Source: Cylindrospermum sp. FACHB-282 (GTDB lineage: Bacteria > Cyanobacteriota > Cyanobacteriia > Cyanobacteriales > Nostocaceae). Taken from it: a stretch of 64,000 nucleotides of DNA. The stretch lies in NCBI RefSeq assembly GCF_014697195.1, contig NZ_JACJRJ010000002.1:155973-219972 (forward strand), given 5' to 3'. Of the stretch, positions 18,280 to 23,197 are shown piece by piece. The first letter of the stretch is position 1, and every line of letters starts with the position of its first letter. The notes beneath the pieces are model-generated. The model saw only the letters and a program-made list of their open reading frames with translations, had not been told where the DNA came from and searched no databases. The translations under genes and the position numbers were made by a program.

Positions 18280-20109
18280 ATGCCTTATAACCCGCGCCTT
18301 AAGTTTTTAATCGAAATCTTAAAAGCCGTCGCCAAGAACAACACGCCGGAAAACATCTATCCCCGGCTGAAGGCGAAGCAACACCTATTAGATCAAGAAT
18401 TTGCTCAAGTTTTGCAAAGCTGGGCTAGGGAACAGTTTGACATATTGGAGAGGGAAGCAGCACGAGATATTGCCTCCAATATTAATAATTTCACTAATCG
18501 GATATGTGAATTCCCCTTAGGCAACCGGGCGAGTAATTTAGAAATTGCGATTGCCGATTACGAGCTATTACTGACTTTTTTTACCCTCACAGATTTTCCA
18601 CAAGAATGGGCAATGACCCAAAACAATCTGGGAAATGCATACAGTGACCGGATACTTGGGCACAAGGCAGAGAATTTAGAACAAGCGATCGCATCTTACC
18701 AAGCAGCATTGCAAGTCTACACCCGCACTGCGTTTCCCCAAGACTGGGCAATGACCCAAAATAATCTGGGAGTTGCATACTGTAACCGGATACTTGGGGA
18801 TAGGGCAGAGAATTTAGAAATGGCGATCGCATCTTACCAAGCTGCATTGCAAATCTACACTCGCACAGCGTTTCCCCAAGACTGGGCAATGACCCAAAAT
18901 AATCTGGGAATTGCATACAGAAACCGGATACTTGGGAACAGGGCAGATAATTTAGAAATGGCGATCGCATTTTACAAAGCTGCATTGCAAGTCTACACCT
19001 GCACAACGTTTCCCCAAGACTGGGCAAAGACCCAACACAATCTGGGAATTGCATACAGTCAGGCAGGGAATTTAGAATTAGCGATCGCATCTTACGAAGC
19101 TGCATTGGAAGTTCGCACCCGCGAAGCTTTACCCCAAGACTGGGCAATGACCCAAAATAATCTGGGAAATGCATACAATCAGGCAGGGAATTTAGAACTA
19201 GCGATCGCATCTTACCAAGCTGCATTGCAAATCTACACCTGCACAGCTTTTCCCCTAAAATGGGCAATGACCCAAAACAATCTGGGTAATGCATACAGTC
19301 AGGCAGGGAATTTAGATCAGGCGATCGCATTTTACGAAGCCGCATTGCAAGTCTACACCCGCACTGCCTTTCCCCTAAAATGGGCACAGACCCAAAACAA
19401 TCTGGGTAATGCATACAGTCAGGCAGGGAATTTAGAACTAGCCTACAACGCCTATAAATCTGCCATTGAAGGTGTAGAATTTCTGCGGCGGCAAATTGTT
19501 TCTGGTGATGAAAGTAAACAAAAACTGGCGGAAGAATGGAACGAACTTTATCGCCGGATGATAGATGTGTGTTTGCAACGGCATGATTCCTCCCAAGCGC
19601 TGAGATATATTGAACGGAGTAAAACGCAGAATTTAGTAGAAGTAATAGTTAAGCGAATTCTCCAACAGGAACTGCAACCTCTAGACAACGAAATTGCTGA
19701 GGAACTACTACGCCTCAAAACCTCAGAAAACCCAGATCAAACACACCTTAATCAACTCCAAGCAAAACGTGAGGAAATCCAAAAGGGTGAAGTTCCCTTA
19801 TCTACCATCAGCTTCAGCGATATCCAAGCTTTAATAGATGATCACACCGCAATATTGCAATGGTACATTTTTGATGATTGCTTCCGCGCCTTCATCATTA
19901 CCCCTCACCATCCAAAACCACAAGTTTGGTCATCTACACGGGAAGATTTAGATAATTTAGAAAACTGGAAAGCAGATTATCTCAACATCTACGAACCCAA
20001 AAACAGCACTTGGCGACAAAACCTAGCCGCAAAACTACAGCAGTTAGCAGAAATTCTCCACATTAACGAAATTCTCGCCCAATTCATCCCCCCAATATTC
20101 AAGCCCTAA
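18280..20109 (+). CDS. TPR-CHAT protein, N-terminal part (frameshifted before the catalytic domain)
   Basis: 609-residue frame. After a helical N-terminus (about 80 residues) come tandem TPR-like units: about three of 46 residues (EWAMTQNNLGNAY with DRILG insert) then about three of 40 residues (with SQAGNLE). Then follow a helical linker and the first strands of a CHAT domain (ILQWYIFDDCFRAFII). The frame ends after ILAQFIPPIFKP, but one frame over the sequence continues directly as PPNIQALIIVPHRYLHLFPF, a standard CHAT segment. The break falls in a C6 run at 20088-20093; a seventh C would restore an unbroken 918-residue TPR-CHAT protein. CHAT proteins are caspase-like proteases or signalling scaffolds. 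This may be a pseudogene, a phase-variable gene or a sequencing error. Confidence 0.8.
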   Translation: MPYNPRLKFLIEILKAVAKNNTPENIYPRLKAKQHLLDQEFAQVLQSWAREQFDILEREAARDIASNINNFTNRICEFPLGNRASNLEIAIADYELLLTFFTLTDFPQEWAMTQNNLGNAYSDRILGHKAENLEQAIASYQAALQVYTRTAFPQDWAMTQNNLGVAYCNRILGDRAENLEMAIASYQAALQIYTRTAFPQDWAMTQNNLGIAYRNRILGNRADNLEMAIAFYKAALQVYTCTTFPQDWAKTQHNLGIAYSQAGNLELAIASYEAALEVRTREALPQDWAMTQNNLGNAYNQAGNLELAIASYQAALQIYTCTAFPLKWAMTQNNLGNAYSQAGNLDQAIAFYEAALQVYTRTAFPLKWAQTQNNLGNAYSQAGNLELAYNAYKSAIEGVEFLRRQIVSGDESKQKLAEEWNELYRRMIDVCLQRHDSSQALRYIERSKTQNLVEVIVKRILQQELQPLDNEIAEELLRLKTSENPDQTHLNQLQAKREEIQKGEVPLSTISFSDIQALIDDHTAILQWYIFDDCFRAFIITPHHPKPQVWSSTREDLDNLENWKADYLNIYEPKNSTWRQNLAAKLQQLAEILHINEILAQFIPPIFKP

Positions 20110-21035
20110 TTATCGTCCCCCATCGCTACTTACATTTATTTCCTTTCCATGCTTTACCTATAAATAGCGATAAAGAATTTTTGATAGATAGGTTCACCAA
20201 TGGTGTGAGATATGCTCCCAGTTGTCAGTTATTGCAGCTTGCTAAAAATCAACCACAGCCTTCTGGGCAGTTAGGTAAAATCTTTGCCATTCAAGACCCC
20301 AATGAAGACTTGTATTACACTAATATCGAAGTTGAAACCATTGCCCGTCACTTTCAACCAGCACCAATAGTTTTGAAAAAAAGCCAAGCTACTAAAGACG
20401 CTTTATATCAACCTCCACATAATGATAGTTTGCAGTCTGCCCATTGCTTACACTTTTCTTGTCACGGTTATTTTGACCTCGAAGCACCTTTAAATTCTGC
20501 CCTAGCCCTAGCTAACTCTCGCGTTTCTTCCGTTCCCAATGCCGACAGCAGACGCTATAGCCGCTTTACCAAAGATAGCGACTTCGACTTACAAAAATGT
20601 CTAACTTTAGGTGATATTTTTAATCTTAATCTCCGTCAATGTCGCCTTGTCACTCTTTCAGCTTGTCAAACCGGAATCATTAACCACGAAAACACCAGCG
20701 ATGAATACATTGGCTTACCTAGTGGTTTTATCAAAGCAGGTAGTGCAGTTGTAATTAGTACCTTATGGTCTGTGGAAGATTTTTCTACTACTTTATTAAT
20801 GATTCGCTTTTATGATAATTTAAACTCTCTAAGCATAGTGCAAGCCTTACAAGAATCTCAGCTTTGGTTACGTAACGCCACCCAAATAAAATTAATTAAA
20901 TGGACTAGCGAACACCCAAAAATTGAGCAACATTATAAGGATAGGATTCAGGAAGAATTAGAATTATGGTTTAAATCAGAACAAAAACCATTTTATAAAC
21001 CTATAGATTGGGCTAGCTTCTGTATAATTGGATAA
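20095..21035 (+). CDS. TPR-CHAT protein, C-terminal CHAT catalytic part (after the frameshift)
   Basis: Continuation of the preceding gene in the next frame. The track begins it at TTG 20181, but homology-like sequence (IQALIIVPHRYLHLFPFHAL) starts at once after the C6 run. Both CHAT catalytic residues lie here: His in LHFSCHGYFD (H95 of the track frame) and Cys in VTLSACQTG (C162). The domain ends in the usual FIKAGSAVVISTLWSVED and PIDWASFCIIG. Without frame restoration the upstream TPR part would lack the active site, and this part has no good start or ribosome site of its own. Downstream, 21064 follows after 28 bases. Confidence 0.78.
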
Positions 21036-21063
21036 TGCTAAATAACTAAAAAGGAGTTTCATC

Positions 21064-21438
21064 ATGATGAAAGATAATGCAATTATTGAATCTTTTATAG
21101 AAGTTCTGAAAGACAGTGAATATCCGTTAGCAGCCGAAACTATTGCCGATTTGTATCAGCTTGATAAAACTCTGTCAAATTTGCAAAATCAACCCATCAA
21201 ATTAGGCGCTGAGGCAATTATCGCTTGGTGTAAGGAACATCCAGAAGTTAGAGATGTAGTCCGATACAATTATAATAATAACAGAGAAATTCAAACGGCA
21301 GGTTCAGGTGAATCAGCCAGTACAGAAACTACCCTCGTTAATCATTATCCCCGCATAAAAGAGGCAATTAAAAATTGCCAAAATCCTCCAAATCCACCTG
21401 CTGATAGTACAACTAATAATTCCAACAATAATCCTTAA
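21064..21438 (+). CDS. Small acidic protein downstream of the CHAT gene, unknown function
   Basis: 124 residues, no family recognised with certainty. A strong AAGGAG ribosome site lies 8 bases before the ATG. The N-terminal 75 residues look like a compact helical domain (IIESFIEVLKDSEYPLAAE, AIIAWCKEHPEVRDVV). The C-terminal 50 residues are low-complexity and rich in Asn, Pro and Thr. It follows the CHAT gene after 28 bases and is probably cotranscribed. Small helical domains next to CHAT or other caspase-like proteases are often adaptor (effector-associated) domains in bacterial conflict systems; that link is inference from context. Confidence 0.7.
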   Translation: MMKDNAIIESFIEVLKDSEYPLAAETIADLYQLDKTLSNLQNQPIKLGAEAIIAWCKEHPEVRDVVRYNYNNNREIQTAGSGESASTETTLVNHYPRIKEAIKNCQNPPNPPADSTTNNSNNNP

Positions 21439-21702
21439 AATATTAGGGGTGCGTTAAATACAGTACTTCATAAGTAAATAAAGTACACATTTCAATATTA
21501 TAAATCCTGTGGGGTGGGCATCTTGCCCGCCTTTGTGTACCTCACTCAGATAAAATTTACTGTAGGTTTAACGCACGATATAGCGGTTTTCATATCAGTG
21601 AGGTACAGTTTTCAATCGCAAACCCTCTAGGGGCGGGGTTTACCCGCCATCGATTGTATTTCATCCGACAGAGAATCGCTATAAAAAAATTAGGTATAGA
21701 TA

Positions 21703-21903
21703 ATGAGTTTTAAAGTTTACGCGCCAAACGTACATTTATTCGCCTTTCATCTGCAAGAAGATAATCAGGGAAATGATACAGATTGGCTTTGGCAAAACTG
21801 TGATCAAATTATTGCTAAAGTTCTCCAGCAACGATTTCAGCTTAAAGATGATTGGCTAGATGTAACGCAAAAAAAAAGATTCTTCCCGCATCGCTTTAAC
21901 TAA
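21703..21903 (+). CDS. N-terminal part of frameshifted membrane protein
   Basis: 66-residue frame (MSFKVYAPNVHLFAFHL) that runs into AQKKRF-like sequence and stops soon after an A9 run (21869-21877). Removing one A joins it in frame to the large frame downstream through QKK-DSSRIALTKPEKVENNNF, giving one protein of about 497 residues from 21703 to 23197. The last eight residues of this frame are therefore out of frame. ATG at 21703. The spacer 21439-21702 holds GGGGTGGGC-type palindromes and no gene. Confidence 0.65.
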   Translation: MSFKVYAPNVHLFAFHLQEDNQGNDTDWLWQNCDQIIAKVLQQRFQLKDDWLDVTQKKRFFPHRFN

Positions 21904-23197
21904 ACCTGAGAAAGTCGAAAATAATAACTTTCTAGTTTCCCTGAAGGGGGATGTAAATTTCAATAGCCAACCTATCGGAGTTACAGGCATTGTTTACGCT
22001 CTCCGGCTATTTGATAGTTACGGTTTATGGTTGAATTTGCGTCGTCCTCAACAAGAAAAAGGTCAAAAATCTGAAGATGTAGAAATCAATTTTTTACAGC
22101 TACTAAATCCAGATAATTGCTTATTTTTAACTGATACAGACGAATTTCTGGGGGAAACTCTTTTAATTACAGCTTTCCTGACTGATGAAGATAAAAATAA
22201 GAGTGCAGCAGAATTAAGACTTCTCGCTGATGCTTGTTTAACAGCTTTTTTGCCTGTTGATGGTTCTCTACCACCTTTTAATCGTTCTGGTTCACTAATT
22301 GGTAGTCAGATTTTTGAATATGGTTTGAACGACTTGCCAAATTATCACCATATTTTAGTTTGGCTATTTGCTAATAGTGATGCTGAGAAGAAAATCCTTG
22401 ATGAATATTATAATCAATTGATTGATTTGTTTTTCTTTAGAAATAAAGTTATCAGTGCTTTTAAAGATAGTAGAAAAATTTATCAAAAGATAAAAGACTG
22501 CTATACCAAAATTGAAGAAGAAATTCAAATATTACAAAACCTAGGTCATAACCCTAGATTAAGCAATGATGATTTGGATAAATTACAAATAAAAATCAAG
22601 AGTTTACCTCAATTAGCATTAGAATATGAGAATTTACTGCGATATTTAGCCGAGTTTAAAAATACAATATATATTAACGGACATACTTATAAAAGTAGAC
22701 TGGAAGAAATACAGAGTTTATTACCTGATGAAAACCTCGAATTTTTAGAATATTTTTATCAGAAAAATTATCCTTATTTTCAAGAACAGATAAAGGTTGA
22801 TTTAGGTTATTTCCAGAATGGTTCTAGCTTGCTCGATAAAGCGATCGCATCGATTCGCGGTATTGTGGAGATTGAGCGATCGCGTTTAGCCCGTGACCAA
22901 GCAGAACTTGCTGAAAAAGAGCACAGAGCCAGAGAGCAAGCAGCAGCACTGGTAAGAACAGCCAAAGAGCAAGCTGATCAGCAACTGCAAAATTCCATTA
23001 CATCTATTGGTACAGGAATCGCTGCTGGTTCTTTCATCGCCTCCAGTTCTGGATTAATCACTATACCTTGGCGAATGCCTGGGGATAAAGATGCTAGCAA
23101 CTATCCCCATCCCTTGATTATCTCCTTAGTGTTAAGTACTGTGATTGGTTTTGCCGTTTGGTGGGGTTGTAAAACTTGGCTGGCAAAGAATAAATAA
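21878..23197 (+). CDS. C-terminal part of frameshifted two-helix membrane protein
   Basis: The track starts this frame at TTG 22031, but it is open from the A9 run and the sequence (FLVSLKGDVNFNSQPIGV, then TGIVYALRLFDSYGLW) continues the preceding frame. No family is recognised. The body is mixed alpha/beta then helical. A long coiled-coil-like stretch (ERSRLARDQAELAEKEHRAR) precedes two membrane helices at the C-terminus (TSIGTGIAAGSFIASSSGLI and LIISLVLSTVIGFAVWWG), with a short basic tail. The bulk is predicted cytoplasmic, anchored by the C-terminal hairpin. Its position behind a CHAT protease gene suggests a signalling or effector role at the membrane; this is inference. Confidence 0.7.
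   Translation, partial: DSSRIALTKPEKVENNNFLVSLKGDVNFNSQPIGVTGIVYALRLFDSYGLWLNLRRPQQEKGQKSEDVEINFLQLLNPDNCLFLTDTDEFLGETLLITAFLTDEDKNKSAAELRLLADACLTAFLPVDGSLPPFNRSGSLIGSQIFEYGLNDLPNYHHILVWLFANSDAEKKILDEYYNQLIDLFFFRNKVISAFKDSRKIYQKIKDCYTKIEEEIQILQNLGHNPRLSNDDLDKLQIKIKSLPQLALEYENLLRYLAEFKNTIYINGHTYKSRLEEIQSLLPDENLEFLEYFYQKNYPYFQEQIKVDLGYFQNGSSLLDKAIASIRGIVEIERSRLARDQAELAEKEHRAREQAAALVRTAKEQADQQLQNSITSIGTGIAAGSFIASSSGLITIPWRMPGDKDASNYPHPLIISLVLSTVIGFAVWWGCKTWLAKNK

What the first reader, a model, noticed from the sequence alone, without database searches (positions are those of the whole stretch)
21869..21877. A9 homopolymer frameshift in the neighbouring membrane-protein gene
Frame 21703-21903 and frame 22031-23197 join into one ~497-residue protein if one A of an A9 run is removed (QKK then DSSRIALTKPEKV). 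A9 runs are known sites of transcriptional slippage and phase variation. Finding a second homopolymer break in the same locus is unlikely to be chance for a decayed locus with no other damage.
Basis: partly seen in the sequence, partly recalled or inferred. Interest (0 to 1): 0.7.

Follow-up and report, generated by a model that had tools for sequence, protein, structure and literature searches.

The report
Recently frameshifted cyanobacterial membrane-protein gene
A cyanobacterium has gained one extra A in a run of eight in a gene that is intact in its closest relatives, and its partner protease gene is also broken, so this looks like an ordinary recent loss of one operon rather than a regulated genetic switch.

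Summary
An A9 run at 21869-21877 splits a 497-codon gene into 58 + 439 codons. Two same-genus genomes carry the gene intact: one has A8 there, the other (Cylindrospermum sp. NIES-4074) has A6-G-A. More distant relatives have no A-run at this site. The A9 is a +1 change private to this genome, not a conserved recoding site.

The upstream TPR-CHAT protease gene is also privately broken: C6 where NIES-4074 has C7. Across the 220-kb contig these are the only two clear internal coding frameshifts found. Of 59 A9/T9 runs sampled genome-wide, only this one sits at a split gene. The clustering is probably real, but it fits decay of one functional unit, and the unit has decayed in another genome too.

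Lack of other damage fits a recent event; the distal part still shows mild constraint and no stops.

Slippage at A9 is physically plausible and could make the null leaky. It would need loss of one A, the disfavoured direction, and it would not explain the C6 break. Phase variation and assembly error remain untested because no reads were available. The intact operon is a conserved, unnamed three-gene cassette.

The parts
18280..20109 (+). TPR part of the TPR-CHAT protease gene, cut short by a frameshift
   Evidence: Pfam TPR matches; sisters have one intact frame of 878 and 918 codons
20088..20093 (+). C6 run, frameshift site in the TPR-CHAT gene (C7 in G002, CCCCTCC in G001)
   Evidence: DNA alignment; sequence
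20181..21035 (+). CHAT protease part in the other frame, catalytic-type CHG and SACQT motifs retained
   Evidence: Pfam CHAT E=1.3e-43; motifs
21064..21438 (+). Small (124 aa) all-helical protein, middle gene of the cassette, intact
   Evidence: Conserved between the CHAT gene and the membrane-protein gene in relatives; sister protein predicted as five helices, pLDDT 80
21703..21903 (+). 5' part of the membrane-protein gene: 58 codons in frame, then 8 out-of-frame codons and a stop
   Evidence: Translation; family profile match to positions 3-64
21869..21877 (+). A9 run, +1 relative to A8 of the closest relative; the frameshift site
   Evidence: Sequence; alignment with two sister genomes
21878..23197 (+). 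Distal 439 codons of the membrane-protein gene (rest of alpha/beta domain, long helices, C-terminal membrane segment)
   Evidence: Open frame; family profile E=1.4e-171; model of the intact G001 protein, pLDDT 83; hydropathy

Best explanation
A recent +1 replication-slippage mutation turned an in-frame A8 tract (CAA AAA AAA GAT, Q-K-K-D) into A9 and truncated the third gene of a conserved TPR-CHAT / small helical / membrane-protein operon after codon 58. The CHAT gene of the same operon was independently broken by loss of one C (C7 to C6). The operon is most likely inactive in this strain, with gene 3 at most leaky because RNA polymerase may slip on A9. Shown here: the frames, the sister sequences, the privacy of both changes, and the rarity of such breaks elsewhere in the contig. 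Inferred: the replication-slippage origin, the ancestral run lengths, the recency and the loss of function. The idea that the cassette is a protease-triggered membrane effector is weaker inference.
For: Both sister genomes carry intact genes, with A8 or A6GA, and an intact TPR-CHAT frame. The A-run is absent at this site in more distant homologs. These are the only clear internal frameshifts among 158 ORFs / 52,306 aligned residues of the contig, after inspection of the other flagged cases. Other members of the family are broken in unrelated ways: a nonsense codon in G018, an indel in G007, a replaced C-terminus in G006. In G018 no CHAT gene was found in the roughly 2 kb upstream, so the unit has decayed elsewhere too. 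Distal codons on the window branch: 20 synonymous, 29 non-synonymous, against 24:23 on the G001 branch, with no stops. There is no second copy in the genome.
Against: Constraint on the distal part (dN/dS about 0.4-0.7 on the window branch, p 0.003-0.11 depending on the transition bias assumed) is also what a still-expressed gene would show. A9 is long enough to slip in many bacteria (PMC1088944). No reads or RNA were available.
Confidence: 0.7

Rival explanations
1. Transcriptional slippage on A9 produces enough A8 mRNA to make the full-length protein: a 'pseudo-pseudogene' in the sense of Baranov et al. 2005.
For: A9 is a known slip length. Nostoc sp. PCC 7120 IS elements carry 8-10 A runs inferred to slip (PMC1088944). 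An A11 run rescues tssM in Citrobacter at about 20-25% (PMC4256274). Distal codons show mild constraint.
Against: The run is not conserved. Rescue needs loss of one A (or gain of two), and genome-wide data show that insertions, not deletions, dominate in A/T runs; that study detected no restored reading frame (PMC5574713). The partner CHAT gene is broken at a C run, where no slippage insertions were seen in those data.
Confidence: 0.1
2. Phase variation: the A tract (and perhaps the C tract) flips the operon on and off in the population.
For: Both breaks are single-base changes in homopolymers, and the sister species has the in-frame A8.
Against: Nine A and six C are short for contingency loci (own knowledge). 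The on-state needs two independent changes in one cell. Of 59 A9/T9 runs sampled in this genome only this one lies at a split gene; 12 sit inside long open frames. No run of 10 or more of any base occurs in the 220-kb contig.
Confidence: 0.07
3. Sequencing or assembly error: the true sequence is A8 (and C7), and the operon is intact.
For: The genome is a 113-contig draft; homopolymers are the usual error site; both proteins are otherwise undamaged.
Against: No comparable homopolymer frameshift was found in 158 ORFs of the same contig, though 13 A8/T8 runs lie in its genes. Two errors falling in one three-gene operon (about 4.5 of 157 kb coding) has a probability of about 0.03 (own estimate).
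Confidence: 0.13

Closest known systems
Homopolymer-indel pseudogene ('authentic frameshift')
   Same: Single-base change in a mononucleotide run, orthologs intact, partner gene of the operon also broken
   Different: Apparently recent, so no further decay yet
'Pseudo-pseudogenes' of Baranov et al. 2005 (PMC1088944)
   Same: A9 run at the break; homologs are single ORFs
   Different: Rescue needs one A fewer; expression not tested; the partner gene is broken at a C run
Citrobacter rodentium tssM1 (PMC4256274)
   Same: Poly-A run splits a gene of a multi-gene membrane-associated system
   Different: There A11, demonstrated 20-25% frameshifting, with a counterpart in Yersinia; here A9, not conserved, untested
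TPR-CHAT protease Csx29 of Craspase (type III-E CRISPR)
   Same: TPR array followed by a CHAT protease; sequence match of the intact sister gene (E=2.4e-19, below the curated cut-off)
   Different: The neighbours are a small helical protein and a membrane protein; no Cas gene was seen beside it

Membership tests
Functional (programmed) transcriptional slippage site | Slippery run of conserved length and position in homologs | tested here: not met
   A9 / A8 / A6GA / absent
Functional (programmed) transcriptional slippage site | mRNA length heterogeneity and a full-length product | not testable with these tools
   No RNA or protein data
Functional (programmed) transcriptional slippage site | Run of at least about 9 A or T | tested here: met
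   Nine A at 21869-21877
Phase-variable contingency locus | Tract length polymorphic within a clone or between isolates | not testable with these tools
   One genome per species and no reads; only a between-species difference seen
Phase-variable contingency locus | Other similar tract-split genes in the genome | tested here: not met
   1 of 59 A9/T9 runs sampled (of 103) lies at a split gene
Homopolymer-indel pseudogene | Intact single-ORF orthologs in close relatives, change private to this genome | tested here: met
Homopolymer-indel pseudogene | Relaxed selection after the break | tested here: inconclusive
   Window branch 20:29, G001 branch 24:23, Fisher p=0.41
TPR-CHAT protease | TPR repeats plus CHAT domain in one polypeptide | tested here: met
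   Met in the sisters; the window has both domains in split frames
CorA/MRS2-like membrane channel (considered for gene 3) | CorA fold with two C-terminal membrane helices and GMN motif | tested here: inconclusive
   Best fold match CorA, E=3.2e-3, prob 0.97, but TM-score only 0.17/0.30; one clear hydrophobic segment; no Pfam CorA match; GMN motif not checked

The most novel reading that the evidence does not exclude
Polymerase slippage on the A9 run keeps a low dose of the membrane protein in a strain whose protease partner is off, so that the strain carries a damped version of a protease-gated membrane effector.
Probability: 0.05. Interest if true: 0.5.

Novelty: new member of a known kind. 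Interest (0 to 1): 0.2.

Why it matters
As a frameshift it is ordinary and mainly guards against over-reading homopolymer breaks as switches. The useful by-product is the operon: a TPR-CHAT protease, a roughly 120-aa helical protein and a roughly 490-aa membrane-anchored protein, together in 13 of the genomes examined. The small and membrane proteins have no credible match in Pfam or NCBIfam, and none of the three scored in PADLOC. It looks like a protease-plus-membrane-effector unit, and recurrent independent loss would fit a costly conflict system.

Tried and rejected
Rejected: programmed -1 ribosomal frameshifting on A AAA AAA, because -1 leads into the frame that stops within about 9 codons. 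Rejected: redundancy with a second copy, because the genome has one. Rejected: NheC/HBL/ClyA-like toxin kinship of gene 3: NCBIfam NheC E=0.0015 is far below its cut-off (17.8 against 420 bits) and the ClyA fold matches are at E>0.1; long helices explain both. Rejected as genic breaks after inspection: the other frameshift flags, which lie before the likely start codons or in short doubtful ORFs. Led nowhere: fold search of the small protein (no match below E=3.4); profile search of solved structures for gene 3. Not pursued: A9 runs beyond the 59 sampled of 103.

Full report
WHAT IS THERE. The A9 run is at 21869-21877. Upstream frame: ATG 21703 to codon 58 (...DVTQKK), then R and seven more codons to a stop ending at 21903. 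Downstream frame: GAT at 21878 to the stop ending at 23197, 439 codons. Together 497, the length of the intact protein in the closest relative. The third frame stops within about nine codons, so -1 ribosomal frameshifting would not restore the protein; loss of one A, or its equivalent, is needed.

RELATIVES. The window is contig C26:155973-219972 of a 6.1-Mb, 113-contig genome, G000. Two genomes of the same genus carry the gene at 92% and 88% identity. G001 reads CAA AAA AAA GAT (A8) and G002 CAA AAA AGA GAT (A6GA); both are single open frames. In 19 more distant homologs the site has no A-run of this kind. So the A9 is private to this genome and the run is not an old, conserved feature.

THE PARTNER BREAK. 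Upstream lies a TPR-CHAT gene (Pfam TPR and CHAT), intact in G001 (878 codons) and G002 (918 codons). The window has C6 at 20088-20093 where G002 has C7 and G001 CCCCTCC. The CHG and SACQT motifs lie in the distal, out-of-frame part. The middle gene (21064-21438) is intact.

IS THE CLUSTER MORE THAN CHANCE? I compared the whole 220-kb contig with G001 (182 kb covered). Among 158 ORFs and 52,306 aligned residues the only clear internal coding frameshifts in this genome were these two. The other flags were upstream of likely starts or in doubtful short ORFs; one further gene has a nonsense codon at C26:22367. A second frameshift landing in the same 4.5-kb operon by chance has a probability of about 0.03 (own estimate). 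So the clustering is probably real. It does not single out slippage: loss of one member of a unit frees the rest. In G018 the membrane-protein gene has an in-frame TAA at nearly the same place, and no CHAT gene was found in the roughly 2 kb upstream. G007 has an indel and G006 a replaced C-terminus.

AGE AND CONSTRAINT. Distal codons: window branch 20 synonymous, 29 non-synonymous; G001 branch 24, 23 (Fisher p=0.41). Against neutral expectation p is 0.003-0.11 depending on the transition bias. No stops. This fits a break late on the branch, and does not exclude residual expression.

A9 IN THIS GENOME. There are 103 exact A9/T9 runs. Of 59 examined, 12 lie inside long open frames and one, this one, at a split gene. 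The contig has 13 A8/T8 runs in genes and no A9/T9 in an intact gene. There is no sign of a set of A9 contingency genes.

LITERATURE. Baranov et al. 2005 (PMC1088944) call genes of this type 'pseudo pseudogenes' and take conserved run length among homologs as the sign of functional use; Nostoc IS elements have runs of 8-10 A. That criterion is not met here. A genome-wide survey in E. coli and Buchnera (PMC5574713) found that insertions in runs occur only in A/T runs, that deletions arise mostly elsewhere, and detected no restored frame. The Citrobacter tssM1 A11 case (PMC4256274) shows that rescue can happen. So leakiness is possible, but it is not the default reading.

THE OPERON. The trio of TPR-CHAT protease, roughly 120-aa helical protein and this membrane protein is together in 13 of the genomes examined, mostly of the same family. 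The family profile matches 155 of 218 genomes of the taxonomic family at E<=1e-6, distant paralogs included. The model of the intact G001 protein (pLDDT 83) has an N-terminal alpha/beta domain, long helices and a C-terminal membrane segment. The best fold match, CorA, is weak. Pfam, NCBIfam and PADLOC give no credible name for the small and membrane proteins. By analogy with Csx29 of Craspase and other CHAT-type systems I infer a protease-triggered membrane effector; this is not shown.

VERDICT. A recent homopolymer pseudogene in an operon that is probably off, with minor room for leakiness, phase variation or an assembly error.

Noticed in passing
window 18280-23197; L033, L034, L003, L035, L037, L042-L046, L048-L050: Conserved three-gene cassette: TPR-CHAT protease, roughly 120-aa helical protein, roughly 490-aa membrane-anchored protein; the last two have no credible Pfam, NCBIfam or PADLOC family.
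   Followed up: partly
L040 (G018:C72): Parallel decay: in-frame TAA in the membrane-protein gene near the position of the window's break, and no CHAT gene in the roughly 2 kb upstream.
   Followed up: partly
window 21439-21702: The spacer between genes 2 and 3 is 264 bp, against about 40 bp in G002, and holds short GC-rich inverted-repeat-like stretches (GGTGGGCATCTTGCCCGCC, GGGGCGGGGTTTACCCGCC); it does not align to the G001 spacer.
   Followed up: no
G000:C26:22367 (L054), outside the window: Nonsense codon (TAG) at residue 151 of a 454-aa ORF that is open in G001 and G002.
   Followed up: no
L047 (G047:C334) and L038 (G027:C66): CHAT gene reduced to a 3' fragment upstream of intact genes 2 and 3 (L038 may be a contig-end effect).
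   Followed up: no
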